Source: Polyporus tsugae
Lineage: Eukaryota > Basidiomycota > Agaricomycetes > Polyporales > Polyporaceae
Assembly: GCA_024305745.1 (NCBI GenBank)
Contig: JAHRBS010000009.1
Location: forward strand, 558,001 to 622,000
DNA: 64,000 bases
Direction of reading: 5' to 3'
Shown: one piece after another, positions 5,300-47,814 of the stretch
How the letters are laid out: each line of letters opens with the position of its first letter
How positions within the stretch are numbered: position 1 is the first letter of the stretch
The notes under the pieces: model-generated
The model's input: the letters and a program-made list of their open reading frames with translations, nothing else
What the model was told of the DNA's origin: nothing
Database searches by the model: none
Made by a program: the position numbers and the translations under genes

Positions 5300-5493
5300 T
5301 GTTACGATACAACTTTTATGATTAGTAATACCACCTGTAACAACCTGTACGACCTGCCCTGAAGCACCTGGTCCGTGCGCAGGCTCCAATACAATATATA
5401 AACCCCTCGAAGCTGCGGTAATTCCCCAGCTTTGAGTTGGTCTTTAGTCCCCCAGTCTTTCGCTTATTGCTAGCGTAAGGTCTGACCTTATCA
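5300..5493 (+). repeat. 5' LTR
   Basis: Begins TGTTACGATAC and ends CTTATCA. It matches 12292-12485 except at 5311 (A versus G), 5351 (G versus A) and 5433 (T versus C). A TATA box and a proposed start site divide it into U3 (5300-5427) and R-U5 (5428-5493). Confidence 0.95.
5395..5402 (+). promoter_or_regulatory. LTR TATA box with start site proposed at 5428
   Basis: TATATAAA lies 33 bp before AGCTTTGAGTT (5428-5438), a normal TATA-to-start spacing. An inverted repeat (CTCGAAGCTG at 5406-5415; CAGCTTTGAG at 5427-5436) surrounds the proposed start. It is perfect over 10 bp in the 3' LTR. Confidence 0.55.
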
Positions 5494-8258: not shown

Positions 8259-8353
8259 GCGCACATACGCGGCGACCATCACTTTACAATAGTTTTCAGA
8301 ACCGGTTTTCTGCCCTGGACTCGGATGTACCCGTTCCGGGTTGTACTATACCT

Positions 8354-25062: not shown

Positions 25063-28000
25063 ATGGCGAAACCGCTGGTTGTCATCCTGTGCCTCGAGGA
25101 CTACTCTCTTGAGTTGTCGTTTAAGATCCACCGTCACCTCCTCTCTACTCTTCCAAACAGGGCCGAGGTTCGCCAGGCACTGAAACCCTGGCAAGCACGT
25201 CGGTATCTGACCAGTACGATTCGCCCTCACGCGGTCATCGTCGTCGACTCCGCGCTCGCGCATCCCTGGTATCGCGATATCCTCTGGCTGCTGGGGAGCT
25301 ATGTCAAGGCTGGTGGCACTGCGATCTTTTCCGGGATGTTCATCAGCACGATTCCGGACATGAGCTTCGACGAGATCTGGAGGGACGTCTTTCTCCTGCG
25401 CTGGCGCGCATGCTTCCCGGACAGGGGCTCTAAATGTGTACTCAACTCTCATGTGGATGCACTCGACGTCGCCGAACTCCCCTCAGGATACAAACCATCG
25501 AGCGGAAATGCGACGTGGATCAACGGCGTTTCTCCTGAACATGCGGTGTATATGGACAGTGGAGAAATTAAGAAGTTGGAGAAGGGGAAGGAGGCAGAGA
25601 CGTCAGGTCAAGCGATGGTGAAAACGCCTATCGCATTCGCGACACACAAGAAGGGCCGCGTCGGGTATGTCGGAGATATGAACATCGGAGGCAGCAAAGA
25701 CGCAGCCCAGGTCATCCTCGCTATGTGTTTCTATCCTGGATCTCAAGCTCCGGTTGCTCCTGGCACAGGGGGTCCTCTGGTGAGCACCATTCTTTTTTTC
25801 CCTACTTCTTCAGTTCTCCAACAATCGAGGTATCTTCAGATTTCTATGGGGCCGATGTCCACCGACGAGCACCTCCCACGGCGCAACATCTTGATCCTCT
25901 CGCTCCAGAAGCAAGAATGGACCGACAACACGTATGCGCAACTCTACAACGCCCTCCGTATCAATGCAAACGTTCCTCCGGCGCCGCCTTCACAGCCCTG
26001 GCCGCGACTCCTCAACCGGACGTGGTCTTCGTCTCCGACGGTGCAATCACCGGTCCTCAACACAGTCGCGTCCTCAGCAAGCTCGTTGAGTACGTGCGGG
26101 CAGGTGGCGTGGTCGTCCTCGGGATGCACTTCAGCAACTTCTTCCCGCTCAGCGCGGGGCGCAGCTTCTTCGGCCCGTGGGGCCTCCCGTGGGACCTGGG
26201 CGAGTACCACCGCACGACGTTCGCCGTGAACCCGGACGGCGTCCCTGTGCCGCTCGACAAGGACACACTCGTCCCAGCCTTCAGCATGAAGGCGCTGCAC
26301 ATCAAGGGCGCGGCGCGCGAGCATGCGGTGTACCTCCCGACGGCCGAGTCGCGCGTCCAGTCGTTCGTGTGGGCACCCCAGCCCATCACAGGAGAGCTCG
26401 CGCAGGAGAGCCCGGCGGTGTTCGCACGCGTCGGCGAGGGGCACCTGGGGTACGTCGGGGACGTCAACGGGGAGCAGGGCTCGACGCGCATCATCATCGA
26501 GATGTGTGGGGTCAAGATCCAGCTGGGCGATATGGGCTCGCGGAGGCTCCCGAATAGCTTCAGGATGCGCCCCAATGGGACGGCCGATACGGTGGGGACG
26601 GAGGAGGAGGTGTTGCTGCCCGTACCGCCTCGCCCCCCTCCCCTTCCCCGCGCACCTCGCGCGCGCGATGAGGAGGTCCGGGCTTGGGACCATATGCGGG
26701 AGATGGACCGGAAGGAGATGATCGAGGAAGCGGAGGAAGACAAGACGGAGGTGCGCAGTTGACGCCATTCGACCCGCGATAACGTGTTCAATTTCTTACA
26801 GGGCAACGACCTGTTCCGAGCGGGGCAGTGGCAGGAAGCCGCGGAGAAGTATCGCTCTGCAATCATGTGCAGGGGTCCACAACCTGTCTACCTGGCCAAC
26901 CTCGCTGCGGCGCTCCTCAAGCTCGAATTGTATGTTCGCTTTCAGGCACTTTCCACCCGATTTTGACTATGTCATCTCCTCTCACGGAGCCCAGATACGA
27001 AATCGCTGACAGTGCTGCATCTCGTGCTCTCATGCACGACCCGAAGCACATCAAGGCACTGTACCGACGCGCCCTCGGGCGGAACGCGTTGGGTCGTTCC
27101 AACGCTGCGATGTACGGTCAGCGTCTTCCTTTTTTCCTCCCTTGCGCGTGCGTGTGGACTGAATCCCTCCTGGCACAGACATCACCCGCTTGCTTGCGTT
27201 GGAGCCGACGAACGGCCCCGCGCGCGACGAGCTCGGGACGATGGTGCGGTTCGAACGGGGGGTCAGAAACGTCAACTGGCCAGGGGACGGTGAGCTTCTC
27301 CTGAAAGAGCCCACGGACATAGAACTTCCGCTGGAGATCGATGACTCCGACTGCGACCCGTTTAAAGCGCTCTCGGTCGGGAACGGCGAGGAGTGCAGAG
27401 CGTGGAACCATGACGGGTGTGAAGACGGGGACCATTGTTCGTTCAAGCACGCCCCTGATGGGCAGAGCGTCCGGGACGACTTGTGCGTACTTTTCCATTA
27501 CTCGCCCGCAGTGTGTATATCCTGACGACGGGGAAAATCAGACGGCGGAACGTCTGCCTATCCTGGCTGCTCGGAGAGTGCCGCTTCGGGGATGATTGCT
27601 TGTACGCCCACGATGAGGAGTACCTCCCTCCTCAGGGGTGGTGGACGGACGACGCGCGGCTCTCGCGACTCTGCCAGGAGTTCCAAATCGCCGTCAAAGA
27701 AGCACCCCTGGACTTCGGCGATGGGCCCGTCTCGGAGTGCATCCTCGCGGAGGCTCTCAAGCCTTTGCACTGGCAGTTCGACTTGTGGTTCACCGCGGAG
27801 TACGACCACGATGCCGACGACAGGATGGTCAATGAACCCCCTCAAGCTCTAGACGACGAATCGGAATGGATGGAGGAGGAGAGGATGGAGGAAGGAGATT
27901 TTGATCCCGAGGCATTGGAGGAGGAGCTCTTGGAACGCGCCAACAACTACGGGTTTACAGAAGCAGACGTCGAGGAGATTCTGATGTACGGCATCAAGCC

Positions 28001-28122
28001 CTACGACCCCGGTGCCTACGTATGTACTTTCCTTCGCGTCCCATTTCAGCCACTCACCGCAGTACATGCAGGACGAGTTGACGCAAATACAACTCATAAC
28101 AGGCTCCGGAGGGCGCCGCTAG
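25063..28122 (+). CDS. G1: double Rossmann-like/TPR/double CCCH zinc-finger protein, one frame discontinuity
   Basis: Exons 25063-25779, 25840-26750, 26802-26929, 26995-27116, 27179-27482, 27542-28019 and 28063-28122. The first exon encodes one Rossmann-like domain (MAKPLVVILCLEDY, RPHAVIVVDSAL, KAGGTAIFSGMF, RVGYVGDMN) and the second a related domain (RNILILSLQKQEW, RAGGVVVLGMHFSN, LGYVGDVNGEQGSTR). Then come a TPR module (GNDLFRAGQWQEAAEKYRSA, HIKALYRRALGRNALG) and two CCCH fingers, both C-X7-C-X5-C-X3-H. The fold is class I amidotransferase/ThuA-like, but no catalytic Cys elbow is seen. Near 25958-25995 the frame changes relative to G2. Either a frameshifting deletion occurred, or a 38 nt GT..AG segment is removed, which is very short for an intron. 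Function unknown; an RNA- or protein-binding role is inference. Confidence 0.65.
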
Positions 28123-28899
28123 TCATCCATCCTTGGAGTAAAACTTGTTTATAACGAAGCGAGAAGTTTCCTGGAGCGTCGACACAGTTTTTACCGCGGA
28201 TTGCCCATGTCAACTTCCTCTCCGAACTGTATGACAGCTCTGCAGGGTACCTTCTGATCCCTCCGGGTGGAAGTGGTCCTACTCAGGACCTGGCCCGGGG
28301 CGTGCCGTGTGTTTCCGTGAAGAGCCATCCGAGTGGTCTTTGGCAAAGTTCCCTCAACGCTAATCTCGACCAATGAGCCTCAATGACAAAGTAGTGTGTA
28401 TTCCGATTGAGATTGTCTTTCGGAAGTAGTTTGCATTGCAAAGTGGCAAGCTCAAGCTCGCGCGCAGGACAGCTGTGGCACGGCATCACGGTGATTAGCC
28501 AGGTCGCCTTACGCGATCACGCAGCAGCACGCGACCTGAAAGGCTACTAGTGGCGAGCCTCAGCCTCGAGGCTCATCGCGACTTGTCTCCGACTCCCATC
28601 CACCGTCCTACCTAGCAGGGACGTTATCATCCACCACATAGTTCGGTATGTCGAATTTAAACACGAGAGACGTAGGGTACTGACACTGCATACATCTGAA
28701 TCTAGGTAGAGTCTAACGTCTAGCCTTGAAAACCGAAACCAGCTCATTGCACCATCGAGCCACTCCAAGCGTGGTAAGTCGTCGAAATAATATCAACTTG
28801 TACTTATATACCGGAACCCCGCTCCTTATGTTGCACCTAGAAATAGTTATTGCTTGGTGTGGCGTTTCCAACCAGATAGGCACACAAGCCGAATCACCC
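28123..28899. other. Intergenic between G1 and G2
   Basis: No coding sequence supported; it should contain the G2 promoter. An in-frame open stretch continues upstream of the chosen G2 start (28900). The start was set by alignment with G1 and G5, which begin MAKPLVVIL and MAAKPLIVVL. Confidence 0.5.
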
Positions 28900-31879
28900 A
28901 TGTCGGTCAAACCTCTGGTTGTCATCCTTTGTCTCAAATATGAGGTGGGCTTTGATAATGTCTACGCCCATCTTCTTTCGGTACTCGCACAGAAGGATGT
29001 GATCCGCAAAGCGAGGTCCCTCTCCCAGGCGCGTCGATATCTCACCAGTACCACCCGTCCCCATGCGGTCATTCTCGCCGATGCTGACGTGACGGAACCC
29101 GAATACCACGAGCTCCTCGCGCGGCTCGTCGAATATGCTGTAGCAGGCGGAACCGTGATATATGCAGGGCCATTCAACTCGGCAGCCCTTTATCCTGACC
29201 TCAATACCACGTTCGAGAACGTCTGGGGCCTACCATGGCGCGTATCCACATCATGCTCCAGCGGCAGACACGCTGTCAACCCGCATGTCAAAGGCTTCAA
29301 TACCAAAGGCCTCGTCAAACAATGCTCATTCACCGCACCTCCCGTCGATAACGTAGCGCTCGAAGATGCTGTCTACGTCACCCCTAGCCTTGCGAAGACG
29401 CTCGAGAATGGCCGACCGTCACCTCCCAGGACCTACAAAACTCCTGCCGCTTTTGCGAAGGTTGGACGCGGTAGCGTCGGATATGTAGGAGACGTTCTTG
29501 GGAAGCCTGCTATGACCAACCTCATCCTTGCCATGTGCTTCTGGCCCGGATCTCGCGCACCAATCGCCCCAGGTGACGGTGCTCCTGAAGTGGTATGTGT
29601 TTCGTCTGCATCGATCTCAACGGTCGTCGGAATTCACCAGCAAGAGCACAGATCCTCAGAGATCTACCCTCCGCGGACGGGGATGCGGCCTCTCGCGCTT
29701 CGACCTCCGATGCCGCCGACCAACCAAAACGCAACATCCTCATCATCTCCCTCAAGAAAGAAGAATACATGGACGAAATATATGCGCAATTCTACCAAGC
29801 CCTTCGCAAGAACGCGACCGTCACCGAAGTCGAGCAACCTCGCGGCGCCCAGGCCGCCCTCTCCGCAACCCCTCGCCCAGACGCGATCGTCCTCTCCGAC
29901 CCCGCCCTGGCCAGCTCCAAGCACAAGAAGATCCTCACGAGCCTCATCGAATACGCACGCTCGGGCGGGACAGTTGTCCTCGCCTTGCAGTTCAGCAACG
30001 AGATCAAGCCCGGGCAGATGCGGCCCTTCTTCGCGCGCTGGGGCGTCCCGTGGGACCAGGGCTCGTACCACCGCACCACGACCGCGCTCAACCCCGCTGG
30101 CATTCCCGCCCAACTCGACAAGAACGCACTCCTGCCTTCGCTCAGCGCGAAGGCCGTACATGTCAAGAACGCACCGCGCGAGCACGTCGTGTACCTCCCC
30201 ACCGCGACCTCGCGCATCGAGTCGCGCGTGTTCGCCCCGGAGCCGATCACAGGCGAGATGGCGGAAGAGAGCCCGGCGGTGCTCGCGCGCGTCGGAGAGG
30301 GGTACCTGGGGTACGTCGGGGACGTGAACGGGGAGCAGGGCTCGACGCGGCTCATCTTTGAGATGTGCGGGGTGAAGATCCAGCCGGGGGATTTGAGGAT
30401 GAGGACGGTCTCGACGGGGATTACCGTGCATCCGGATGGAAGGACGGAGCCGATCATGGAGATGGAGGAGGAGGTCTCCTTGCCGGCGCCCCCTCCGCCG
30501 CCGCGTGCCCCCCGTCCGCGCGATGCGGAGGTTGCGGTGCGCGCTGAGGCACGCGCGAAGGTCCGTGAAGACAAGCGCAAGCGCGCGGATGAGCTCAAGA
30601 ACGAGGTGCGTGCTCGTGCAAGCTGTACGACGGGATCTGGCTGACATTGTGTCCAATGACATGCAGGGCAACGATTTGTTCCGACAGGAGGAGTGGGCCG
30701 AGGCGGCAGAGAAGTATCGCGCAGCGGCCTTGCTCGGAGGACCACAGCCGGTCTACCTGTCGAACCTCGCTGCGTGTCTGCTGAAGCTAGACCTGTGGGA
30801 TCTCGCAGACAGCGCTGCGACGCGCGCCCTCATACACGACCCAAAGCACATCAAGGCGCTGTATCGCAGGGCTCACGCACGGAGGGAGCTCGACAGGTTG
30901 AAGGCCGCGCTCGCAGGTACGCAGCTCACCTCCCTAGTACCAGAACCTCAGTTGACACCGTGCGAGTAGACTTGGAGTGGCTGCTCACGATTGACAGGCT
31001 CAATACGCCCGCGCTCCAGGAGAAGCTGGCCGTCAGCGAGCTGCTCAACCTTGTTGGTAGCATCGACTGGCCGGAAGACACGTCCGTCCGTTCTCAGCGA
31101 GGCCAGGATGTTGCGATCGAGATTGAGGACGAGTCGGACTCGGAAGACTTTGCGCACCTGGGCACCAACATCGCGTGCAGGTACTACAACACGAGCGACA
31201 CGGGCTGCCGCAACGGGAAGACGTGTCGCTTCAGGCATGCCCCAGACTCGAAGAGCGTTCGGGACGAACTGTGAGTACGCCTGCGACCGCTTGTCTGTTC
31301 GTAGAATTTGAGCACTGACTATGACTATACGCAGAGGGAGGAACGTGTGCGTATACTGGCTCCTCGGGCACTGCCGCTTCGCCGCGGTGGGCAACTGCGT
31401 GTACACGCACGACGCGACGTATCTCCCCGAGCGCGGGTGGTGGAACGACACCGCGCGCCTCGAGCGCATGCGCGCGGAGTTTGACGGCGCGGCCCAAGCG
31501 GAACCGCTCGACCTCGGGGCTGGACCGATGACGGAGCGCATCCTCGCGGAGGCATTTGTGCCGCTGCCGTGGCGGAAGGACCTGTGGGCCGTCACGTCGT
31601 ACGACGTGGAGGTGCTGGGGTCCGACGAGGATAGCGAGGACGACTACGGGTACGGGTACGGCTCGGATGACGAGGAGGAGCGCGGGGAGCTGAACGAGTT
31701 CGGGGTCACGGACGCGGACGTGGAGGAGATGTGGGAGTATGGGATCAAGCCGTGGGAGGACGATGCTTACGTGCGTGCACTCACTCTTTTCTGGGGTCTA
31801 CTGTCGCGTTGCTGACATGGTGGGGTTGGATTTGCAGGCAGAGATGCTGAGCATCCGACGTGCTTTGAGTCATTTCTAG
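28900..31879 (+). CDS. G2: intact double Rossmann-like/TPR/double CCCH zinc-finger protein
   Basis: Exons 28900-29592, 29652-30605, 30667-30916, 30970-31270, 31335-31770 and 31838-31879 join without a stop to about 891 residues. The order is: Rossmann-like domain 1 (about residues 1-230; MSVKPLVVILCLKYE, RPHAVILADADV, VGYVGDV); related domain 2 (about 250-480; RNILIISLKKEEY, WGVPWDQGSYHRTT, GYLGYVGDVNGEQGSTR); a charged linker; a TPR pair (GNDLFRQEEWAEAAEKYRAA, HIKALYRRAHAR); an acidic segment; CCCH finger 1 (C-X7-C-X5-C-X3-H); finger 2 (C-X7-C-X7-C-X3-H); then an acidic tail ending MWEYGIKPWEDDAY. The TPR is on one 250-nt exon, whereas G1, G3 and G4 split it 128+122. This is the best template for the family. 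Biochemical role unknown. Confidence 0.82.
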
Positions 31880-32589
31880 TTTGGGGCCCCGGGGCTTTGA
31901 AAATTGATAGTGTTACCTACCCTGGGGCATCAAGAGGCTGGCGCAAGTGTACAATGCATGATTCTGATCATCTAATTAAGCGCACGCGTTGAAAAGTGGA
32001 ATGTTTAGTGTGACGGTCAATTCACCATCGGCGACGTCGTTTTCATCGCATCTACATCCCGTCGGCAGTGTTGGCATCCCTATCGCTTGAAGTTGGGGGA
32101 CGTGGATGAATACGTACGACTGTTACCTCGTCCAAATGTGATCGCTTCGGTCTGGCTCATGATTGGTTGAGTGTTCCTACGGAACAGAGAGCTGAGGCTG
32201 ACGGAGAAACAAGTGGGACGCAGGAATTGTCATGTCGGACTGTTCAGTGGATCTAAGTCAGCCGGCGGCCAAAGCCCTAGGCGCGGACCTGCCGCACACA
32301 TTGCGCACGTACTTGATCAGCCTACTGTACGTTACAAATAGCAAGGTCTTCAATTGTTGTTCCTCGACCCTTTCTCCCTACCCTCTTCCACTGTTCTCCC
32401 AACCAAGTTCATTGCCATCACTGTTGAGCTCACCGACTCGAAAAAAAGGCGGCGAAGGCAGTGAGAGTCAATGCATCTAATCTTATCTCTTATGTCGCGT
32501 GCTTACATTCGTTCCCCCGGTCTCTTACTCATCCTCGTCGACCACGACATATTACAGCCTGTCTGCGACTCGGACGTCCTGGCACGACC
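31880..32589. other. Intergenic between G2 and the F-box gene
   Basis: No gene recognised. The 3' half is pyrimidine-rich (32350-32450) and probably promoter and leader of the F-box gene. Confidence 0.5.
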
Positions 32590-34760
32590 ATGGCGTCGCA
32601 CTCCATCTTCGAACTCCCTGCAGAACTCGTCGAGAGCATCCTCATCTCCACGGCGGCTGGCGGCTTTCCTCAGGCGATCGCCGCGTTCGCACAGACATGC
32701 AAGACCCATCACGCTCTGGTCTACAACACCGCAGACAACCACCTTTGGCGCGAGATCTTTCTGACGACGTTCGATGACCCCCGCGCATCGGGCGGAGGGC
32801 CAGGCTGGGGCCAGTGCATATCTTCGCATGCGCAGACGGAGGAGGCGTTCGACTGGGGCAGGCAGTTCAGGCAGCGCGTCTGGGCGGCGGGCTACATCCG
32901 ATGGCAGACTGACCCGGTGGCCAAAGACTCAGTGGACCCGGTCACGGACCTGGAGCAGAGCCTGCGGAATACATGTGCGTTCAACACGATATTGTCTGTG
33001 ATGCGTTCTGCGCTGCCTTGTCCCCCAACGCTCGTCTTCTCTTTCCTCGACTGCGCCGACGCGCACGAGACGAATCTCACCACCACCACGAGCTCGAGCT
33101 ACCCCACCTTCCCCCCGCTCCCGCAGGCGATTGGTGGTCCGAACCCGACGGACACGCGAGGCCGGGTATTTGGGCACTCGCTCCGCGCGAGCAACACCAC
33201 CTGGCTCGAGTCCGTTCTGGAGAAAGGGCTCCCGCCAGAGGTCACCGCGGCGTTCTCCGGGAACAAGTGGGACGGCGGCCTCGTTGGCCAGTTCCTCTGC
33301 GAGCCCGAGCTCTGCGAAATGCAAGCCGCAGCGCATATCATCGCCTGCACCGGCTTCATCCCCCAGCCAGACCCTTCTTCGACATCACCTGCCCCCGGCG
33401 AACGCGTCCCGTCCGCGGCCGCTGCCTCGTACATGACCGTGGAGAACCAGACGAAGCGGGCACGCCGGCTCGCGCGTATGCGCGTCTACAATATGCGCTA
33501 TCTCGCGCCCAACCGCCACTGGGGGCCGTTCTTGCCGTGCTCGGAGGTGGGTCACAGGGCGACGGACGCGGTCGCAGACGACGACGAGCTTCTGCAGCCG
33601 ATCCTTGCGCTTTTTCGCGTCACGCCCGATTCTGAGGACATAGATACCCATGTCGACGAAGAGGATGGGGAAGAAGTAGAGGAAGAGGAAGTGGAAGGCG
33701 AGGACGCGGTAGCTCGCGCGGAACCTACCTCGCGGGACGGCGTGCCTGAGGGAGCTCCCTCGTCGGCGCAGCTCTACACGGACTGGGCGTATCTCGCAGC
33801 GGTGCGTATCGTGGCGGAAGCGAACCTGCGCGAGTCTTTCCAGGCGCAGGACCTCCGTGGACTGTTTTCGCTCGATGGCCTGCGGCGGGGGAGCGCGCCC
33901 TACGACTGGACGGCGTACAGGCCGCCGTCTCCGGTGGAGAGCAAGGATGAGAAGGGGAAAGGGAAGGCGAGGGACGACGGCGAGGTCGAGGGCTGGGACT
34001 GGGCTGGGGTGAATGGCGTGTGGAAGTGCGTGTCTCCTTCTCGCGGTTCATTTCATGTGGTGCCGGCTGACGAGGGAGTGACTGCTCTCAGGCGTTGCAT
34101 ATGTTGGCTGGACTACCGCGACTTGATTCGTGAGTGCTCCCCTCCATGCCTCTTCCGAACGCCTTGCTAACCGAGCGCTATCCACAGTGCACAACGTAAG
34201 CTCATCCCTTGTGAATGTAGGCTGAAGGAGCACCCGACTCACCCAGGTCGAGTTGCAGCTTTCAGGCGAGTTCGAAGACCCACATCTACAGGAAGCCGTG
34301 CGGATCGTCTCGATGCGCCTCCGTATCAAGTCCTACTCCAAGTCGGAGGTGCCGGGGTACGCTCACCTCCCGACGATCCACTTTGTCGGCGAGACGACTG
34401 GCGCGACGATCCATGGGCAGCCTCGCTCGTTGCGTGGGACGGTGTCCGTCATCGCGGACGGCAGCGTTCGCTGGGTGCTGGTCAGTCCGGCCGCACTTCT
34501 TTTCCCTCGTCGTCGCTGACCCTGGTTGATGTCCTCAGTGTTCAACGGTAGAGGGGGGTGATATGGACGAGTGGCTGTCAGAGGGCGTCCAGGTCGGCGG
34601 GGTCGCGTCCGCGATGGGCGTCCTCGGTCTGTGGACCGGGGCGCAGCATGAACGCATGGATCCCCTTGGTGCGTATCATTCACTATTCACATCATTGTTA
34701 ATCTAAGCCTCGTACCGACGTCCATGTGTAGGACCGTGTTGGTCTTGGAAGGTCGGCTGA
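32590..34760 (+). CDS. F-box protein
   Basis: Exons 32590-34025, 34092-34129, 34188-34195 (an 8-nt microexon), 34247-34480, 34539-34668 and 34732-34760 join in frame to about 624 residues. The N-terminus (SIFELPAELVESILISTA) is a clear F-box, the Skp1-binding part of SCF ubiquitin ligases. An acidic run of Glu/Asp follows near residue 360, and the C-terminal half has the WVL..EGVQVGGVASAMGVLGLWTG pattern ending GPCWSWKVG, seen in agaricomycete F-box proteins. The joins at the small exons are supported by frame and by this C-terminal pattern. It lies between two oppositely oriented groups of composite genes and reads toward G3. Substrate unknown. Confidence 0.8.
34188..34195 (+). other. Candidate 8-nt microexon of the F-box gene
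   Basis: TGCACAAC sits between CCACAG and GTAAGC. It completes a Leu codon and adds His-Asn. Skipping it would break the frame. Confidence 0.55.
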
Positions 34761-35398
34761 ACACGCCGGTTTTGTTCTCCCGATGGATGCGATTGACATA
34801 AACTCGCCCGAGTCGCCCTTGCTTTTTGCTGTGCGTTGTCTTTGCTGTCGGTTCCGAGACTTTCAGTTCTCGTCGGTCGGTTGTTTGCTCTGCGGTTGCT
34901 GTTGTCGGATATCAAAGCTGCACTTGTTCGCGCTATACGATTACAAGGAGCTAATATTCTAATGTGTATACCCAATCATCATTGCCAGCGTCAACTCGTT
35001 GCGGACGGTGCTACCAGACATAATAGCAACCTGAACAAGGCATGCCGGGCTTGTTTACGTACGGTATATAATGCGAACTGTCTGCATGCCGGTCCTACTC
35101 AGCTGCGAGCGTCACTATTGCAATAAGCTATCGGAAGCCGTGGCTTCCCCTAGGGAGGCATATCGATCCCAGATATGATACATCCAGACCATGGTACGCT
35201 ATCTTACACTATTTCCTACCATGCCCGACCGAGGGTTTTCCTGATCCCGATTGGCGTCCAGCGCTCCTAGACAGACAGGCATCGTCAGAACTCGATGCAG
35301 AACAGATCTAGCGATGGCCGGCGCATGGACAGAGATGAACAGAGGACTCACATTCATCCATAGCCCCGACCACCCATGACTGGAAGTCGTCCTGTTTA
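34761..35398. other. Intergenic between the F-box gene and G3
   Basis: Convergent 3' ends meet here. No supported gene or RNA seen. Confidence 0.5.
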
Positions 35399-38291
35399 TC
35401 AATACGCCTCATCGTCATCATCCTCACTTCCATCCTCCGCGACCCTGCACGGCGTCGTCACCCACAAGTCGTTCCGCCACGAAGCTGGACGCAGCGCCTC
35501 TGCAAGGATGCTCTCTCGCGCCCCACCTAGTAGCCCAGGTAGGGGCATGCGCTCCACAGCAGCGTTGAACTCCTCGCGGAGCCGTGCAAGCCGTGCGGAG
35601 TCATTCCACCAGCCCTTGGCGGGGAGGTACGTCGCGTCGTGCGTGTATCGGCAGATCCCGCCTTTCGTCGGCACACATTCGCCTACGAGCCAGTACAGAC
35701 ATACGTTCCTTCCCCTACTCACGCGAAGAAGCAGAGTCAGTCAGTGGTCGCTAAAGACTTGCATAGGGAGATCGTGGCACGTATGTACAGCTCGTCACGG
35801 ACGCTGCGCGCGTCGGGCGCATGCCTGAATTGGCAGCGCTTCCCCCGATTGCAACCGTTGCCGTTGTAAAATTTGCACGGGGTCCCGTTTCCATCGTGCA
35901 CGAAGTCCTCCGTGTCCGACTCATCCTCGAGCTCGAGCGGTTCGTCGCTAGCACCTGGTTCAAGCTCGTCCCCAGGCCAGTCCATGGTTAGGCGGGTTTG
36001 CTGGTAGGACCGGACAGCCTGCAACTCCATGCGCGCATTTGTATTTGCGCCGTCCATCGACACAACCTTGTTGAAGTCTGCGGCAAGCACGATTAATCGC
36101 GTACAGGAATTCCTCCCATGGAGCTGGCTTACCGGCCTCTGCGGCGGTGAACCGACCCAATTCCTTTCGCGCGAGCCCCCTGCGGTAGCGCACCCTGGTG
36201 TTGTCGGGATCATACAGGAGTGCTCGTCCCGCCGCGCTCTCCGCAGCTGCCCACCTGGGATTGACACAATCGATTTCAGATGCACTGGTTACAGCCACTA
36301 GATAACAAGCACTTACTGTTTCAGCTTGATGAATGTCAGGGCGAGGTTCGACAGGCATATAGGATGGGGGCCACCCAACAAAGCGGCTGCGCGGTACTTT
36401 TCCGCCGCCTCAACCCACATCTGCTTCTTGATCAAATCCACGCCCTATTGGGGGGTTGCGTGTGGGTTAACAAGAATATACACAGCAGAAGATCGACATC
36501 TTATCCCACTGTGATACCTACCTCTTTCGCCAACACCTCTATCTTCTGATCCTTTTCAGCCCTTACGTGTGCCCTCGCCTCCGCGCGCGCTCCGAACCAA
36601 CGTTGCAACGCCCGATCTCAAGGTGTAATCTTGAGGTGTAGCAGTGCGCAGCACTGTATCGGAGGCGTAGGGCAGGGGTATCTCCGGCTCTTCCGTTATC
36701 TTCTCCTCGAGCACCACTCCCCCACGAATCCTGGTCTCGCTCACAAACCTCCGGCATCCCATATCCCCCGGCTTGATCGCGACCCCGCACATCTCGAGCG
36801 TCAGCCGCGCAGAGCCCTGTTCCCCATTCACGTCCCCGACATATCCGAGGAAGCCCTTACCGACGCGCGCGAACGCGGCTGGGGTCATCTGCGCCTCGAC
36901 GCCGGTAATCGACGATGGCGCGAAGACATGCGACTCGATGCGCGAGTCGGGAGGTAGACCGCCGCCTCGCGTGCGACGTCCTTCAGGTGCACGGCCTTCA
37001 TGCTGTACGACGGCTGGAGCGCACGCGCCGACAGTGGCGCGGGGACGCCTGCGGGATTGAGCGCAAACGTCGTGCGGTGGTACGCGCCTGCATCCCAGGG
37101 CAGACCCCAGCGGCCGAAGAAGGTGTGCGCGTCCCCGCCCGGAGTTCGCTGCTGAATTCCATCCCGAGGATCACGGTCGCGCCTTCATGTGCAAACAGGA
37201 TGAGCTTGTAGAGGAGGGCGGTGTGGGTGGGCTCGCAGACGGCCGCATCCGCGATGAGAACGACGTCGCCGGGGCGGGGTGGGGCGGAGACAGTGGTCGC
37301 TGCTGTGTCCGCATCGCGGATTACGACGATGGATGCGTCGCGGGTGAGCCCGCAGAAGATCTGGGAATATTCTTCTTGAAGCTTGCGCTCGCTTTGCAGG
37401 GAAAGGATGAAGACCCGGCGGAGAGTCTTAGTGTGAATAGTCAGCAGACCCAGAGAAAGCGGCGAGGTGAGGTTGGCTGCAGTTGCTGCATGAGCGTTCG
37501 GATTCGGATGGGGACTTGAGGACATGCTTCCAGCCGACCCCTGAGCATTACCACTTGAGCGGACTCCATTGGAGGCGCATATATGAACGTCGAGAACTCA
37601 CCGGTGCTGAGATACCCGTACCAGGAGAGGCGGGTGCACGAGATCCGGGGTATAGGCACATGGCTAGCACGAGGTTCGTTGTGCCAAGCTCCCCGTTGAC
37701 GTCGCCAACGAAGCCAAAGCGACCTGCACCAATGATTGTGAACGTTGCAGGAGCTGTGAACTTGGCACCCGAGGCCCGCTTCGTCTTCAAGGCATCAATG
37801 TACCGCCCGTCGAGGTAGAGGGCATCCTCGCACTTGACATTGTCGAGGAGGATCGTCTTCATAGAATATGTCTGGACGAGCTGCGGGACATGCATTCCTC
37901 TGGTACTAGAGGGGTTTGCGGTAAAGTCCGCACGGTAGTACTCTCCAAAGCGCCACGGCAAGTTCCATACGGTCTCGAAGTGCGCGGAGATGTCAAGAGG
38001 CCCAACGAAGCTACTGAGACATCCTGCGTAAAGCACGGTGCCGCCAGCCTTGACGTAGTCGACGAGCTGGAAAACGATGTCCCTATATGCGTGCTTGGTG
38101 ACAAAGCCGTCCGCAGCGATGACGGCTTGAGGGCGAGCTGTGCTGCTGAGGGCCCGTCGCGCCTGATCTGGAGTGCTTACTTCACGAACGTGGACCTTCT
38201 GGATCAGAGTGTCCCGGAGGTGAGTGTAGACGGAACGGAAAAGGTCGTCTTGCTCCAGGGAAAGTATGACAATCAACGGCTTTGGCGTTGC
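35399..38291 (-). pseudogene. G3: decayed member of the composite-gene family
   Basis: All the family parts are present in order on the minus strand, but broken. Domain 1 (38291 to about 37600; TPKPLIVILSLEQDD, RFGFVGDVNGELGTT) has no ATG where relatives start. Domain 2 (about 37525-36560) crosses three frames: a shift after FSSELRAG near 37135, and a second near 36945-36955 that fits loss of 7 nt relative to G5 (TACCTCCC then GACTCG). A third shift lies near 36565, before the linker. The TPR exons 36317-36444 and 36133-36254 (128 and 122 nt), the exon 35789-36077 with finger 1 (C-X7-C-X5-C-X3-H), and the exon 35399-35714 with finger 2 remain open. The acidic tail is shortened, ending DDDDEAY at a TGA. 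Not expected to make a full protein. Confidence 0.75.
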
Positions 38292-38396
38292 TAAAGAATG
38301 CTCGTGAGTTGTACATGGGACGTGACATTGGTCTACTCATGATCCCATTGCCGCGGCGATGTTCGTCGAGCTACACCCGCTACACTGTGAGGGCCT

Positions 38397-38520
38397 CACC
38401 GGGTGATTTTCACCCGGCTATTCAACCGTTTCTCGAGTGATAACAAACCCCTCACCGGATGACTTTCAACCGGCGCTGATTGGAGTAACCCGATGTGCGG
38501 GTTGCTGGCACCGGGTGAAT
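38397..38520. repeat. CCGGGTGA-rich repeat cluster, left
   Basis: Contains TCACCGGGTGA, TCACCGGATGA, and CGGGTTGCTGGCACCGGGTG near 38496-38516. Confidence 0.45.
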
Positions 38521-39294
38521 GGAACTCGAAATTTGGCCGCCTTCATCCAGTGCACACCGGGGTATGACCGGTTGAAAGTAACTGTAACTCGACCGTGCAG
38601 GGTTACCAACCTGGTGAATTTAACTCGGTCTTCTTGTTAGTTTCACTGGTTGGTCTGGCAGTTTCAGCCTTTCAGAATCCCCGCACTGGCCATCCAGTAG
38701 GCATAATAAATGCTACGGTAAAAATTGTATTATATCCATGCGTATTACATCACAATTTTATTGTACTCGAAGACTACCTTATTCGACTACTACATTGAGA
38801 AGCACGCCAGCAATGGCCCTCACAGCGGCTGGCCCGGGCAAATGATTGTGATGACACATACCTCGGGTCCACAGCGTATCCACTGCCATTCCCCATGCTC
38901 GTTTTGGCCTCCACGTTACATCGGATGGATCATGGAATACCTGAAAAAGTGTGAGCATCGCGCGCCATCACCGCTGGACTTACCGAGACCCGGTGGTCAG
39001 CCAAACGCTACACAGCGGTACCGGTACTGACCTTGTATCCACACACACACTTACAGGACCTACCTCGCTAATGGCAGAACCTGATAAATGGACGCACCTG
39101 GCGCCCCGCGCAGAGGAGATGGAAGTAGTGGGTAGCCAAGGTGCACAGGCGTCGACGTGGCACTGGCAGCAGTCGTGCACCAACTAAGTTGTGGGAATAG
39201 ATGAGTAAGGTGAGCTCCGGCCGGGCTCATGGGCGCTAATTCTGGCTCGCGTTCAGAAATTTCTAAGTCTCGCCGTCGGGTTACAATCAACAGT

Positions 39295-39410
39295 AAACCG
39301 GATGATATGGAGACCGGGTTGCTGGCGGGTGAAACTCACCCAGATGGCAACTAACTCGGTCATCACCCGGTGCCCGGATGAACCGGACTTTTCATCCGGT
39401 GCCCGAGTGA
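39295..39410. repeat. CCGGGTGA-rich repeat cluster, right
   Basis: Contains AACCGGATGA, ACCGGGTTGCTGGCGGGTGA, TCACCCGGTGCCCGGATGA and TCATCCGGTGCCCGAGTGA. Confidence 0.45.
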
Positions 39411-40130
39411 TTTTGACACGGAGGTGCCTTCACAGTGCTACCGATGACTCTTCTTGTGGAGCCCTCCGATCCCTTCAGTGGGTCGCGTTTACCGTTGTCT
39501 TCAAGCAGTCGATGTTTCTTCTGGCCTGCATGCAAATTTTTGTGAATATGGTATACGTAGTGGTAGTGCTTGTGGGAGAGAGAGAGAGAGATATGAAGAA
39601 CAATTAGGGGTTAAGCGAGTTGACGCCAGTTCGGCGCCAAAGTGAATGCAAGTTGGGATAACTACATACGCTTGTTTTATGTTCCGACTAGCTAGTGCAC
39701 ATTTACGCAAACCACAAGCCCGCACTTGAACAACGGATCCGTGCAAGTGCGTGAACAATGGAGACTCCTCCCAATTGGCAGCCCCAAGGTCCAATTGACC
39801 CATATGTAATGCTGGAGAAACCGTCTCACGGGTTTGCAGCATCCCCATTGGCATGGCTTTATCATCATGCACCCGGGACATGAACAAAAAGCTCTCGATA
39901 CTTAATGGGGATTGGAACTTCTGGGTGCCAATTGTGAGGGGTGTCCGTCAGCCCCTCCTCACTGGCAGCATGCAGGAGTTTCGGTCTGCAGCCAGTTTGT
40001 CCGAGTCGTTGTCCGAGTCTTTCTGTTCTGCTCAATAATCGGTCGCTGCATCACCGCAAGGGCTTAGTAGTCAGTGGTGGGATGAGTACAGCCATGCGGC
40101 TATGCAAGGGAAGTCAATTATCATGCAGGA

Positions 40131-42447
40131 TTACATCCCGAGCCGTCGTTCAACCTCGCTCATCAACATGAGCTCCCTCTCTTCCTCGGAAATCCCCATC
40201 TCGTCGGCGACGAAGTCGACCACCCTCGCGTACGTCTCCATATCCACCGCGCCTAGGTACTCATCTATCGGCAGGCCCGTCGCGGCTCCATCACCGTCAT
40301 CCTCGTCGGAATCGTCCTCCCCCTCTGAGTCCTCCAAGTCCTCGTCGCGCAGCGCGTCCAAGGCCGCACCCATCGCCTCGTTGTCAAAGTTCGCCCACAC
40401 CCACGCGTCCTGCATGTACGGCGCCGGTATGAGCGCCTCCGCGAGGATGCTCTCCTTCACGCGCCCGTTGCCGAGGTCAAGGGGGGACGCCTTGGCGGCG
40501 TCGTCGAACTCCTTACGCAGGCGGTCGAGCCGCGCGGTATCGGTCCACTAGCCGTTGGCCGGGAGGTAGTCGCCGTGGTGGACGTACACGCAGGTGCCCG
40601 TGTCGTGCTTGCCGCACGCGCCGACGAGCCAGTATACGCAGACGTTGCGCCCGCTGCGCCAAGGAGCCAGTGCAAGTGAGCCATAGAGCATGCCAGTGGA
40701 AAAGGGCGAATGGCAAGGGAGAACGAAAAGAGAAGACTCACAGCTCGTCGCGGACGCTCTTCCAGTCCGGGGCGTGGCGGTACATGCACACCGTGGGGCC
40801 GTACCTGCAGCCGCGCTGGGCGCGGTTGTGGAACCTGCACGCGATGCCGTTGCCCTCGTGCGCGTAGTCGTCTGTGTCCGACGGGTAGTCAAGGTCGAGT
40901 GCGCGATCGTCGTCTTCTGTTCGTCTGGTGCGAGTGGGCCGCCGTCCGCCAGGTCCGGGGCCAGGGCGAGGGCGGGCGCCGCTCTCGCCGGCAGCTTGCA
41001 GGCGTTGCAGGATTTGCTGTTCGGCTAAGGCGGGGCTGTTGTCCCTCTCTACCTCGAGGAGACGCGATATGTCTGTTGGCAGAACAAATCAACCATTGGC
41101 GTCGACTCGAGACATAGCAATGGATTGCCGACCGTTCATTGCACCGTCGATGTGCCCTAACTCTTTACGTGCCAGCGCCCTGCGGTAGAGGGCTTTGACA
41201 TGCTTCGGATCGTGCATGAGTGCCCTTGAGGCGGCGCTGTCTGCGTACTTCCACCTATACGCGCAATATATCAGGACCCAGCTACAGAGACGCCACTGGC
41301 ACGCTCCTGATCTTACAAGTTGAGCTTCAACAACGCCGCGGCGAGGTTGGACAGGTAGGTCGGCTCAGGTGCTGCCATCACCGCGGATGCGCGGTACATC
41401 TGCGCTGCCTGCCGCCATGCCCCCCGGCGAAAGAGCTCGTTCGCCTATGGTAACGTGGTGGCACGCAACGCGGGTCAGCCTTCAATTGACGCAAAGTCCA
41501 AGGGAGCAAAGATGGCTTATACCTCATCTTTGTTTTCCTCTGCAAACTTCCGCTTTCGAGCTCGGACTGTGGCCCTCTGCAGGCAGCGGAGGGTGACATC
41601 AAACTCGCGGGGCCTTCGTGCTCCCTCGACGGGCCCCTTGTTCTCTACAGGATCCTGCACCATATTCAGCTTCCAAACGACTCGGACTGTTTAACTCAGC
41701 ACTCACCGATGAAGCCGGCACTCCAGTGCCTAGAGGGCGATGGGCGCGCGAACCGGGGTAGAGGCACATCGCAGCGATGAGCCTCACAGTCCGAGGGTCG
41801 TATTCCACATCCCCAACGTATCCTAAACGACCGCGCCCGACCGCCATAAACGCAAAGGGCGTCTTGTACGTCTCGCCCTGCGGGGGTTTCCACTCCTTCT
41901 TACCCTTGCGCTTCCCCCCAGCGAGCTGATTGGCCACGCGAGAGTCCAGGTAGAGCGCATCCTCGAGCGCGACCGCCCGTATCCAGTTCGCCCGCGTCGC
42001 GTACTTCTTCGCGAGGCCGGCGTGGTCGACGCGGACGGCGTGACCGTTCGTGAACGCGTTGAGCGAGGTCTCGGCGGAGCCCTCCTCGTGGGCGCGCCAG
42101 GGCACCTTCCAGTCGTCCATGAACATGAGGCCGAGCTTCGCGGGGCCGACACGCTGGGCGAAGCCCCCGTCGAAGATGACGGTGCCGCCGTCCCGGGCGT
42201 AGTGCACGAGCCTCGGGAGGAGGCCCCGGTGGTCGGGCTTGAGCACGGCGGCGTCGGAGACGACGATCGCGTACGGGCGCACGGTGCTGTTGAGGTACCG
42301 GTGGGCTTCCGCGGACGTCTTGGCCTCGCGGACGACGGTGCGGTTGGCGTGTGTGGAGCGGAGATGGTGCGTCAATGGATGGGTTCCGTCCCAGGCGTTG
42401 TCGAGGCCCAGGATGACGATGAGGGCTTTCAAGTTTGGGTTGGACAT
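40131..42447 (-). pseudogene. G4: single Rossmann-like/TPR/CCCH protein with internal TAG
   Basis: Minus-strand exons 42447-41707, 41654-41523, 41444-41317, 41254-41133, 41072-40742 and 40653-40131 join in one frame of 659 codons. Only one Rossmann-like domain is present (LKALIVILGLDNAW, RPYAIVVSDAAV, GRLGYVGDV). The second is absent, and a short 44-codon linker exon (EFDVTLRCLQRATVRARKRK) connects straight to the TPR (ANELFRRGAWRQAAQMYRAS, KYADSAASRALMHDPK). Finger 1 is C-X7-C-X6-C-X3-H and finger 2 is C-X7-C-X7-C-X3-H. A TAG at 40548-40550 stands where relatives have Trp, just after finger 2, so the product would be about 519 residues without the acidic tail. The exon plan is otherwise clean, so a truncated protein is possible. 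Called pseudogene because of the stop. Confidence 0.65.
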
Positions 42448-43060
42448 GTTCGTTCGCTAAGATGATCTACGCTCTCTCAAGCCTTTGTCCTAAGTTGTTA
42501 AGCCCAACAACTTGCTCACCTTTAAGTGCGAGTCTGTACTCGTCTAATCAGTTGTACAACGTTTGACCACGACGGCTCGACAGGTCCCTGATGGTTGGTT
42601 TGGTTTGGTGCCACTTGATTCGGAGATGGGAAGTCGATTGCGGCGGACGCTGGCGGGAAGCTGATAAGAGAGTGAGGAACGGCATGGGGAACATAATGAG
42701 AGGCATACCAAAGACAATCGGTTGAAAATTACAGGAAGGTCTGGAGTGAATATTGAATACTGGCGAGTGGTAATGGCGCGTTGAGTAACGTCGCAACCAA
42801 CGTGCGCTTCAAGTTTTTAGCCGTCTCCCTACCGAGCGCTCGTGGCATATGGCACGCGTACTGCAGACACGTGATCGCGTCTTGCGCAGTCGCCGCGCGA
42901 CAAAGACCGTTTGAGAAGACGTTGCCCACAGAGTCCTGACCATACCACGGATACCCATTATAAGAATATTCTACGTTGTGCACCACTTGCAAACATTATC
43001 CATCGCTTCGTCATGCACATTGCGAGCCACCCATCGAAACCTCCGCCCTATGGGAAGTAC
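42448..43060. other. Intergenic between G4 and G5
   Basis: Upstream region of G4; no coding sequence supported. Confidence 0.5.
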
Positions 43061-46047
43061 TCACGCTTGAGCTAGAATGTTCGAAGCCCGTCGGACCCTC
43101 AACATCTTCTCCTGTAAATCCAAAGCGTGAGCAACCATACATCCGACGCATGAACAGTTGAATGTACGCACATAAGCATCATCCTCCCACGGCTTGATCC
43201 CATACCCCCACATCTCCGTAGTGTCCTTCTCCGTGAACCCAAACTCGTTGAGCCGCCCAGGGTCCTCGTCCTCCGACTCGCACAGGTACCCGTCATCCTC
43301 GTAGAACCCCGAACCCACGATCGCGGAGCTTCCCGTTGTACGTCGCGATCGCCCACAGGTCCCTCCGCCATGGCATCGGCACAAATGCCTCCGCGAGGAT
43401 GCTCTCAGACACGCGTCCATCCCCGAGGTCGAGCGGCTCTATCGCAGTGGCAGCGTCGAACTCCGAGCGCAGACGATTGAGGCGCGCGGTATCGTTCCAC
43501 CACCCGCGTTCGGGGAGATACGTTGCGTCGTGCGCGTACACACACTTGCCCGCCGCGTCCAAGCGGCAGTGGCCGAGGAGCCAGTACACACAGACGTTCC
43601 TGCCTCTGCGTGTACGGTATCGTAGTCAGAGTGTGAAACAAGCTAGGAATTTTGACCACACTCACAGTTCGTCCCGAACGCTCTTCAAATCCGGGGCGTG
43701 CTTAGAGTAGCACGTCTTCCCGTTCCGACAGCCCGTGTCGCTCTTGTTGTGATACCTGCACGCCATGCCAGTACCTGGGTGCGTGAAATCCTCCGAGTCC
43801 GACTCGTCCTCGATTTTCAGCGCCCTCTCATGGTCGCGCCGAGAACGGAAGGACTTGTTCTCCATCCAGTCGGGGTCTTCGTCGAGACCGAGCACCGTTT
43901 CTCGTATTCCCACCTTTTCCGTGAGCGCGGACATGTTCATCTTGTCGATCGCAAGAAGCCACTCCAGATCTATGAACAGCATGTTAGCTGTGCGACGTGA
44001 AGTTCTAGCAGGGATTCCCCGCGATGCGCACCTGCGAGCGCGTCTTTGAACTTCTCAAGCCCCTTCCGCGCCAGGGACCTGCGATATAGCGCTTTGACGT
44101 GCTTGGGGTCATGTATGAGTGCGCGTGTCGCCGCGCTCTCGGCGACCTCCCACAGCTCCATCTTCAACAGGCACGCAGCGAGGTTGGACACATAGACCGG
44201 TTGTGGTCCAGCAAGCAAAGCCGCGGCGCGATACTTCTCTGCCGCCTCAGCCCATTTCTCCTGTTTGAACAAATCATTCCCCTGGATATCACATGTCAAG
44301 TTAGCTAAAGTCGTCGGACATCCTGCTCGAACACTCACCGCGTCCTTGAGCACGCCCGCTCGCTTACTCTTGTCCTCACGGACCTTCGCGCGTGCCTCCG
44401 CCCGCCTTGCCACCTCCGCCTCGCGCAGACGAGGGCCGCGCGACGGCACCGGAGGCGGAGCCGGCGCAGACAACGGGATCTCCTCCTCCGTCTCCATAAT
44501 CGCCTCTACCCTCCCATCCGGATGAACGCAGACCCCCGTCGAGTACGTCCTCACTCCCAAATCGCCCGGCCGGATCCTTACCCCGCACATCTCGAACACG
44601 AGCCGCGTCGAGCCCTGCTCCCCGTTCACGCCCCCGACGTACCCCAGGTGTCCCTGCCCGACGCGCGCGAGTACCGCGGGGCTCTCCTCGGCCATCTTGC
44701 CGGTGATGGGCTCCGGGGCGTACACGCGCGACTCGATGCGCGAGTCCGCGGTCGGAAGGTACACGGCGTGCTCGCGGGCCACGCTCTTCAAGTGTACGGC
44801 CTTCGCGCTGAGCGAGGGCAAGAGCGCGTCCTTGTCTAGCGGTGCGGGGATGCCGGAAGGGTTGAGCGCGGTCGTCGTGCGGTGGTAGGCACCCTTGTCC
44901 CACGGGACGCCCCAGCGCGCGAAGAAGGAGCGCAGCTCCCCCAGTTTGATCCGGTTGCTGAACTGCAGGGCGAGGACGACGGTCCCGCCAGCGCGTGCAT
45001 AGCTGACGAGGCTCGTGAGGATCTTGCTGTGCTTGGGCTTGGACAGAGCGGGGTCGGAGAGGATGATCGCGTCAGGGCGAGGGGTGGCGGAGATGGCTGC
45101 CCGGGCGGCGGCGGGTTGCTCGACTTCGGTGAGGTTCGCGGTCTGGCGGAGGGCTTGGTAGAATTGAGGGTAGAGTTCTTCCATGTGTCTATCTCTCTCG
45201 AGTGAGATGATGAGTATGTTGCGCTTCGGTGTATCAGCGCCGGCAGAGTTTGAAGCGCGAGGCGGCACGTCCTCCTCCACAATGGCCACACCTGTATGGA
45301 ACTGCGTAGTTGCCAATGAGCTCCAACAACCATTGAGATTGACGCAAAAACACATACCACTTCAGGAGCGCCGTCACCTGGAGCGACGGGTGCGCGAGAT
45401 CCGGGCCAGAAGCACATGGCGAGCATCACGCTCGTCGTTACAGGCTCTGGGCTGAAGTGCCCCAGATATCCGACGCGACCGCGTCCAATCTTCGCGAATG
45501 CGGCGAAAGTTTCGTAAGTCTTGTTATATGAGGGCTGGCCATGTTCGAGCTTCTTGGCAGTGCTAGGGTTGACGTAGACAGCGTCCTCGAGCGCGACGTT
45601 GTCGATACGAGTCGACTTCACCATACACTTCTTGACAAGCTCCTTGGTACCGATGCCCTTAACGCGTGGGTTGACCGCATGGCTGCCGCTGGTGTGTGCG
45701 CATACACTCCATGGTAAGCCCCAGACGTTCTTGAACATCGCCTTGAGGTCCGGATAGAGGACATTCGAGCTGAATATCCCTGAGTAGACCACTGTTCCTC
45801 CTACTCTGGCATATTCTACCAGCCGCGGGAGGAGCTCGTGGTTTTCCGGGTACGTCACGGCAGCATCGACTACGATGACTGCGTGGGGGCGCGTGGTACT
45901 GGTGAGATAGCGACGCGCCTGGGTAAGGGTCTTCGCCTTGCAAACCACGCCTTTCTGAGCGAGTGCCGGAAGGATGTCCGGGTTGATTTCGTCTAGGATC
46001 GTCGAGGATTGAAGACAAAGAACGACGATGAGAGGTTTAGCAGCCAT
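43061..46047 (-). CDS. G5: double Rossmann-like/TPR/double CCCH protein, frameshift near the 3' end
   Basis: Minus-strand exons 46047-45358, 45301-44339, 44281-44032, 43969-43666, 43605-43172 and 43111-43061. This is the closest paralogue of G2: the same domain order, a fused 250-nt TPR exon, a related first intron, finger 1 C-X7-C-X5-C-X3-H and finger 2 C-X7-C-X7-C-X3-H. In the last long exon the frame changes by one base near 43310-43325, after ATYNGKL and before the acidic tail (ESEDEDPGRLNEFGF, MWGYGIKPWEDDAY). As written, the protein ends about 15 residues past that point. The tail and last exon (EKMLRVRRASNILAQA) remain well conserved in the other frame, so the lesion is recent or a sequence error. 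Function unknown. Confidence 0.68.
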
Positions 46048-46893: not shown

Positions 46894-47814
46894 ATGGAAC
46901 ACGTTTCTCCGAACGACACCTCTCTCGCAATGATGCCAAACCCTCTCAGTTCTCTATCTAAGAATGAAGTCCCCAACCGCGCTCTTGTGGACGCCCTCCT
47001 CCTCAAAGCCGGTGAAGATTATCCTCGGATGAGAGGCAATATCAAAAGGCTCGCGTCTCATCTCGTCCTCAAGTCCACGCCTCTCTACCGGTCGCGTGTG
47101 GAGGCGGAAGCAACGCGTTTCATTGCCGAACACTGCCCCTCCATCCCTGTACCCCGTCTGCACCATTACTGGGAAGAAGGCGACGAAGGACACCTCGTTA
47201 TGGACTACGTCGAGGGAGAACCCTTTCAACGCGCTCGACATCAGCTCTCTTCTGCGCAACGCGAGACCGTCATGAAGCAGCTCGCCGGATACGTCGAAGA
47301 CCTCCGCCGCATTCCCCAACCACCGCCACTTGGCACGCGCGAGCTCCCCGAACGGAACTGGATCGGCTCGCCTCTTGGTCGTGCGATGACGGACTTCTCG
47401 ATGACCCAAATGGACGAGCCGCTCGGTCCTTTCGCTAACCAGAGCGATTTCAATGACTGGAAGGTATCGCGATACAAGAAGTTCGGAGACGTCCGTGCGC
47501 AACGCATCGCTGAGATGCGACGCGCTATGCCCGACAACCACGCCGTCGTCTTCACTCATGGGGACATCAACCGCAAGAATGTCCTTGTGCGAGTCAAGGG
47601 CGATGGGCCAGAAGACGCGGAAGTTACAGCGCTGCTCGATTGGGAGCAGGCTGGGTGGCGCCCGGTGTTTTGGGAGAGCTTCAAGTGGCGGTGGGAGGGT
47701 TCGACTTCGGAGGAGTGGAACGATTTCGCACTGCAGTACCTGAGCCCTGGGTACGAGGCTGACGTCGCGCTTGAAGAGGAGCTGCAGCAGATTTCAAGTT
47801 ATTTCACGCCGTAG
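46894..47814 (+). CDS. APH-like (aminoglycoside phosphotransferase-fold) kinase
   Basis: An intronless ORF of 306 residues. The kinase-like fold of the APH family is shown by the N-terminal KRLASHLVLKS strand, the hinge HLVMDYVEG, the catalytic loop FTHGDINRKNVLV (Asp as general base, Asn for metal) and LLDWEQAGWRPVFWE (metal-binding Asp). Fungal members are numerous and phosphorylate small molecules or have unknown substrates; the name does not imply drug resistance. All expected residues are present. It converges tail to tail with a DUF6540-like gene 165 bp downstream. The same pair recurs in mirror order at 58.1-59.7 kb, where this gene's partner is broken. Confidence 0.85.
   Translation: MEHVSPNDTSLAMMPNPLSSLSKNEVPNRALVDALLLKAGEDYPRMRGNIKRLASHLVLKSTPLYRSRVEAEATRFIAEHCPSIPVPRLHHYWEEGDEGHLVMDYVEGEPFQRARHQLSSAQRETVMKQLAGYVEDLRRIPQPPPLGTRELPERNWIGSPLGRAMTDFSMTQMDEPLGPFANQSDFNDWKVSRYKKFGDVRAQRIAEMRRAMPDNHAVVFTHGDINRKNVLVRVKGDGPEDAEVTALLDWEQAGWRPVFWESFKWRWEGSTSEEWNDFALQYLSPGYEADVALEEELQQISSYFTP

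What the first reader, a model, noticed from the sequence alone, without database searches (positions are those of the whole stretch)
25063..46047. Five-copy array of an undescribed composite gene: Rossmann-like x2, TPR, CCCH x2
G1-G5 join two related amidotransferase/ThuA-like domains (no visible catalytic Cys), a TPR module, two RNA-type CCCH fingers and an acidic tail. I know of no characterised protein with this order. Rapid tandem turnover beside FunK1 and F-box arrays resembles families involved in recognition or conflict. This is the best candidate in the window for a new system.
Basis: partly seen in the sequence, partly recalled or inferred. Interest (0 to 1): 0.8.

Follow-up and report, generated by a model that had tools for sequence, protein, structure and literature searches.

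The report
Mushroom TPR and zinc-finger gene array
A bracket-fungus genome carries five old copies, three of them broken, of a gene that joins two amidotransferase-like domains without the usual catalytic residue to a chaperone-docking type of domain and two RNA-type zinc fingers; mushrooms of another order carry the same parts in the opposite order, which suggests that the parts work together, but I found no test of what they do.

Summary
The array is real and its ends are exact (G1 start 25063, G5 start 46047), but it is older and more decayed than described. G2 is intact (891 aa). G5 is intact except for a shortened tail, as in three relatives from other Ganoderma species. G1 and G3 have broken frames. 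G4 has one Rossmann-like domain, not two, and an in-frame stop. All matches found in this genome lie here.

New here: Polyporales have GAT-TPR-CCCH and Agaricales TPR-CCCH-GAT, probably two separate fusions onto an older TPR-CCCH core.

Best reading: an RNA-binding adaptor that docks Hsp90 or Hsp70. Rapid turnover and conflict are not supported: copies have apparent 1:1 orthologues, and omega is 0.17-0.35 for G2 against G5. Architecture is shown; function is inferred.

The parts
25063..28122 (+). G1: exons 25063-25779 (D1), 25840-26750 (D2, frame break near 25970), 26802-26929 and 26995-27116 (TPR), 27179-27482 (linker and CCCH1), 27542-28019 (CCCH2, tail), 28072-28122
   Evidence: spliced model with introns of 51-65 nt; P0009 matches in pieces at 88-100%
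28900..31879 (+). G2, intact, 891 aa: exons 28900-29592 (D1), 29652-30605 (D2), 30667-30916 (TPR), 30970-31270 (CCCH1), 31335-31770 (CCCH2, acidic tail), 31838-31879
   Evidence: open spliced frame; domains by own HMMs
29652..30605 (+). D2 exon of G2: ThuA/GATase-like domain (aa about 257-481 of the protein) with YHRTT, SAKA and GYVGDVNGE, then a charged helix leading into the TPR
30667..30916 (+). TPR of G2 with clamp residues K (in LKNEGN, last codons of the previous exon), N (GN), N (SN), K and R (KALYRR)
   Evidence: fold from the model of relative P0001
30970..31270 (+). acidic motif ESDSEDFxH and first CCCH finger (C-x9-C-x5-C-x3-H) of G2
   Evidence: spliced sequence; conservation
31335..31770 (+). 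second CCCH finger (C-x7-C-x7-C-x3-H), LPERGWW motif, acidic tail and GIKPWE tail motif of G2
   Evidence: spliced sequence; conservation
35430..38285 (-). G3, degenerate: D1 open (38282-37604), D2 broken in several places, TPR and both CCCH fingers still recognisable, no clear start ATG, tail ends early
   Evidence: three-frame reading, tblastn with G2, P0034 and P0150 match in pieces
40131..42447 (-). G4: one Rossmann-like domain only (42447-41707), short linker exon 41654-41523, TPR 41444-41317 and 41254-41133, CCCH1 41072-40742, CCCH2 in 40653-40131 with an in-frame TAG right after it
43061..46047 (-). G5: exons 46047-45358 (D1), 45301-44339 (D2), 44281-44032 (TPR), 43969-43666 (CCCH1), 43605-43172 (CCCH2; frame lost in the acidic tail near 43300), 43111-43061
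   Evidence: P0002 matches in pieces at 78-95% and ends near the same point

Best explanation
The family is a mushroom RNA-binding adaptor built on an older core of a co-chaperone-type TPR, a tandem CCCH pair and a KPW tail. The TPR most likely docks on the C-terminal acidic peptide of Hsp90 or Hsp70, and the CCCH pair binds an RNA. The ThuA/GATase-like (GAT) domains are non-catalytic binding modules (client, ligand or self-association); D2 is the conserved one and D1 a drifting duplicate. Together they would bring a chaperone to an RNA or RNP client. In Ganoderma the gene was duplicated before the species split; in this genome G2 and probably G5 still work and the other three copies decay. 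Shown: architecture, clamp residues, zinc ligands, distribution, low omega for G2/G5; fold by prediction. Inferred: chaperone docking, RNA binding and their coupling.
Confidence: 0.45

Rival explanations
1. A recognition or conflict system: the copies diversify to recognise non-self, alongside the FunK1 and F-box-like genes.
For: Tandem copies; four FunK1-type kinase ORFs (PF17667) upstream; D1 (39-63% identity between copies) and the linker with finger 1 (33-63%) diverge most.
Against: Apparent 1:1 orthologues across Ganoderma species; G2/G5 omega 0.17-0.35; the family is spread over Polyporales and Agaricales with near-invariant fingers. No site model was run.
Confidence: 0.12
2. The GAT domain is an enzyme or a small-molecule sensor (sugar or nucleotide), and the TPR-CCCH part delivers it to RNA or chaperones.
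For: Polar motifs YxRTT, SxKA and GDVNxE are 0.83-1.00 conserved in 15 stand-alone ascomycete proteins and 18 D2-type domains; structural relatives include carbohydrate-active proteins: GH42, Agd3, NDST1, ThuA-like.
Against: No conserved nucleophilic Cys; the matching domains of GH42 and IFT52 are non-catalytic (recalled); the motif residues were not mapped to a pocket here, as no coordinates were at hand.
Confidence: 0.2
3. A drifting accessory family without a strong cellular role in Ganoderma: neutral duplicates on the way to loss.
For: Three of five copies broken; named in G. sinense only 'transporter' or hypothetical protein.
Against: Low omega between G2 and G5, and full-length relatives in several Polyporales genera.
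Confidence: 0.18

Closest known systems
RPAP3/Tah1, SPAG1, OM64, SGT and PP5 type carboxylate-clamp TPR co-chaperones
   Different: No RPAP3 C-terminal domain among the Pfam matches shown for 7 relatives; instead CCCH fingers and GATase-like domains
ThuA-like / GH42 trimerisation / IFT52 GIFT domains of the class I glutamine-amidotransferase-like fold
   Different: 7-17% identity; no Pfam family reaches its cut-off in 10 of 10 GAT-only proteins scanned; own motifs YxRTT and GDVNxE
Tandem CCCH RNA-binding proteins (TTP/ZFP36 type)
   Same: Two fingers of C-x7-9-C-x5-7-C-x3-H at near-fixed spacing in most members
   Different: Lead-ins are GNGxPC and LGRNVC, not the (R/K)YKTEL lead-in of TTP (recalled)
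ZC3H7A/ZC3H7B (animal TPR + CCCH proteins, architecture recalled)
   Same: Combine a TPR with CCCH fingers
   Different: No GATase-like domain (recalled); not aligned here. PMC2478707 (passages) lists their function as unknown in 2008

Membership tests
Carboxylate-clamp TPR co-chaperones | TPR fold of the Hsp90/Hsp70-binding type | tested here: met
Carboxylate-clamp TPR co-chaperones | Five clamp residues (Tah1 Lys8, Asn12, Asn43, Lys79, Arg83) | tested here: met
Carboxylate-clamp TPR co-chaperones | Binding of the EEVD/MEEVD peptide | not testable with these tools
   own Hsp90 ends in MEEID, binding itself not testable
R2TP / RPAP3 | RPAP3 C-terminal (RUVBL-binding) domain | tested here: not met
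   absent from the Pfam matches at E up to 1 of 7 of 7 relatives (for P0033 and P0035 only the best 25 of 26 and 30 families are printed)
Class I glutamine amidotransferases | GATase-like fold | tested here: met
Class I glutamine amidotransferases | Nucleophilic Cys at the elbow | tested here: not met
   the only column with Cys in half or more of the D2 or ascomycete rows is 470, beside a Met in the last helix; it has no Cys in 41 of 41 Agaricales domains
ThuA family | Match to a curated ThuA model | tested here: not met
   no ThuA family among the printed Pfam matches or NCBIfam matches; one source calls P0172 'ThuA-like domain-containing'
Tandem CCCH RNA-binding proteins | Two intact CCCH fingers | tested here: met
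   81-84 of 85 cores keep each of the eight Cys/His
Tandem CCCH RNA-binding proteins | RNA binding | not testable with these tools
   none
ZC3H7A/B | Homology over TPR and CCCH | not tested
   no ZC3H7 sequence fetched

The most novel reading that the evidence does not exclude
A mushroom-specific class of RNA-guided chaperone adaptors: a clamp TPR recruits Hsp90 or Hsp70, a tandem CCCH pair selects RNAs, and an unclassified ThuA-like module binds the client or a metabolite. The class was assembled twice, GAT added in front of a complete core in Polyporales and in place of the tail in Agaricales, and its acidic SD(S/T)xD motif before the first finger may be a phospho-switch.
Probability: 0.2. 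Interest if true: 0.75.

Novelty: new variant of a known kind. Interest (0 to 1): 0.5.

Why it matters
If right, it would add an RNA-directed branch to the Hsp90/Hsp70 co-chaperone network in mushroom-forming fungi. It also points to a fungal domain family without a Pfam entry that reaches its members (stand-alone in Ascomycota, present up to four times per protein in Agaricales). The same three modules joined in two orders is evolutionary evidence of a working link that can be tested with binding assays.

Tried and rejected
Circular permutation through tandem fusion (Trametes versicolor P0057 and P0015 look like such intermediates, or are merged gene models): less likely than two fusions, because the KPW tail motif of the short core is kept in 20 of 30 GAT-first proteins but 0 of 32 GAT-last ones, and Polyporales GATs group with ascomycete ones (59 rows, 100/94), apart from Agaricales GATs. 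The tree is rooted at the midpoint and its backbone is weak (45/91), and one clade of all fused GATs is not rejected (AU p 0.143), so this stays open.

R2TP recruitment through a CK2/PIH-type phosphopeptide (SDSED): the PIH1 search of this genome found nothing, but it rang in no control genome either. Left as speculation.

A TPR-CCCH paralogue outside the array: of 16 matches five lie outside; one (L033) reads as another CCCH protein, the other four cover only the TPR part of the query and were not read. A GAT remnant behind the fingers of short relatives: none (best E 0.22; 12 of the 22 were examined). Paper searches on the architecture and on fungal ThuA-like proteins gave no paper; one search gave three, none on this architecture by its listing; searches gave nothing that I used; led only to PMC2478707. 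Sequence search of D2 against the PDB: best E 0.72. G2's own exons were never scanned against Pfam, because my four attempts failed; relatives stand in for them. A single-base assembly error cannot be excluded for G4 and G5.

Full report
What is there. The window is part of a 43.2-Mb genome in 18 contigs; its best relatives are from Ganoderma sinense, G. leucocontextum and G. adspersum, so the host is a Ganoderma or close kin. Five members of one family lie between 25063 and 46047, two on the plus strand (G1, G2) and three on the minus strand (G3, G4, G5). Spliced models with short introns give G2 as an intact 891-aa protein. A search of the whole genome finds 12 matches to the D2 exon and 6 to the second-finger exon, all inside this array.

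State of the copies. G5 reads through D1, D2, TPR and both fingers and loses frame only in the acidic tail; P0002, P0005 and P0006 of three other Ganoderma species end within about ten residues of that point, so this may be harmless. G1 is broken inside D2, while P0009 is continuous there. G3 is broken several times. G4 has a single Rossmann-like domain and an in-frame TAG just behind the second finger. The statement that G1-G5 all join two domains therefore fails for G4, and only G2 is intact by every test.

Age and selection. G1, G2 and G5 match P0009, P0126 plus P0003 (apparently one gene split in two models) and P0002 of G. leucocontextum better than they match each other (matches under 55% identity were not printed). 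NG86 estimates give G2/G5 dS 0.42-0.85 and omega 0.17 (TPR, 83 codons) to 0.35 (D2). The other pairs have dS 0.74-2.08 (one undefined; values over 1 are near saturation) and omega 0.26-0.69, mostly involving decayed copies. This is an old array that decays slowly, not a rapidly turning one. Arrays recur elsewhere: relatives share a contig, judged by equal contig length only, in G. sinense, G. leucocontextum, Trametes versicolor, T. coccinea and Lentinus tigrinus.

The TPR. Solved neighbours are OM64, RPAP3, SGT, SPAG1, PP5, Sti1 and CHIP. The five clamp residues as listed in PMC13153604 (passages; four of them also as the clamp in PMC4058522, passages) are complete in 57 of 64 TPRs of GAT-bearing proteins and in 5 of 22 without GAT. 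Those five are the Jaapia, Artomyces, two Dentipellis and Lactarius proteins; the short Agaricales paralogues lack clamp residues. The seven GAT-bearing exceptions are P0015, P0023, P0026, P0033, P0034, P0035 and P0065. The genome's Hsp90 ends in MEEID.

The fingers. In 85 TPR-CCCH cores each of the eight zinc ligands is present in 81-84. A motif SD(S/T)xD..H.GN precedes the first finger; its S, S/T, last D/E, H and G are each present in 82-85 of 85 and its first D in 79; one pattern for it matches 81 of 85, another 77. Its role is unexplained.

Distribution and order. In one search (98 proteins) two layouts appear. Every named GAT-first protein is from Polyporales and every named GAT-last protein from Agaricales. 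Sixteen species were looked up: six Polyporales, seven Agaricales, and Jaapia (Jaapiales), Artomyces and Dentipellis (Russulales) with the core only; the other genera were placed by recall. Core-only proteins also occur in Agaricales. Exceptions: Mycena P0041 is TPR-GAT-GAT without fingers, P0057 and P0015 are tandem fusions or merged models, P0022, P0024 and P0025 have one GAT, and several rows are fragments. On the core tree GAT-first is one clade (31 cores from 30 proteins, 100/99). Polyporales GATs fall with ascomycete ones, apart from Agaricales GATs (100/94), but the tree is rooted for drawing only and one common clade of fused GATs is not rejected (p 0.143). The KPW tail is present in 20 of 30 GAT-first, 0 of 32 GAT-last and 7 of 22 core-only proteins. 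I read this as two fusions onto an older core, in front of it in Polyporales and in place of its tail in Agaricales; one fusion followed by permutation is not excluded.

Mechanism. The best-supported reading is an RNA-binding adaptor docked on Hsp90 or Hsp70 with a non-catalytic ThuA-like binding module. Parts and residues are shown; docking, RNA binding and coupling are inferred. I found no description of the architecture. [quoted passage not shown]) look like automatic transfers, some perhaps from the TPR alone.

Noticed in passing
window 6241-11572: A Ty3-like retroelement: a gag-like ORF by eye, then aspartyl protease, reverse transcriptase, RNase H and integrase domains in two separate ORFs.
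   Followed up: partly
window 4241-5359, 14297-15742, 18663-20228, 22303-23397: Four ORFs with a fungal-type kinase domain (FunK1, PF17667), all on the plus strand upstream of the array.
   Followed up: partly
window 32461-34170: 569-aa ORF between G2 and G3 that looks like an F-box protein by eye but matches no Pfam family at E 0.001.
   Followed up: no
window 38394-39422: About 1 kb between G3 and G4 with degenerate CACCCGG/CCGGGTG direct and inverted repeats, possibly a small mobile element.
   Followed up: no
window 46894-47814: APH-type phosphotransferase ORF, divergent from G5.
   Followed up: no
G000:C9 2956174, 2966835, 2977496: Three Hsp90 fragments with the same score exactly 10,661 bases apart, as if inside a tandem repeat unit; their sequences were not compared.
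   Followed up: no
85 TPR-CCCH cores; window 30970-31270 and 31335-31770 in G2: Near-invariant acidic SD(S/T)xD..H.GN motif before the first finger and a KPW motif near the C-terminus; both unexplained.
   Followed up: partly
P0076-P0091 and P0093: 17 short TPR-CCCH paralogues without GAT lack clamp residues (9 of 17 read KDSEV in place of KNNKR), while in five of six species seen with both kinds the GAT-bearing paralogue has the full clamp; Agrocybe P0065 lacks the Arg.
   Followed up: partly
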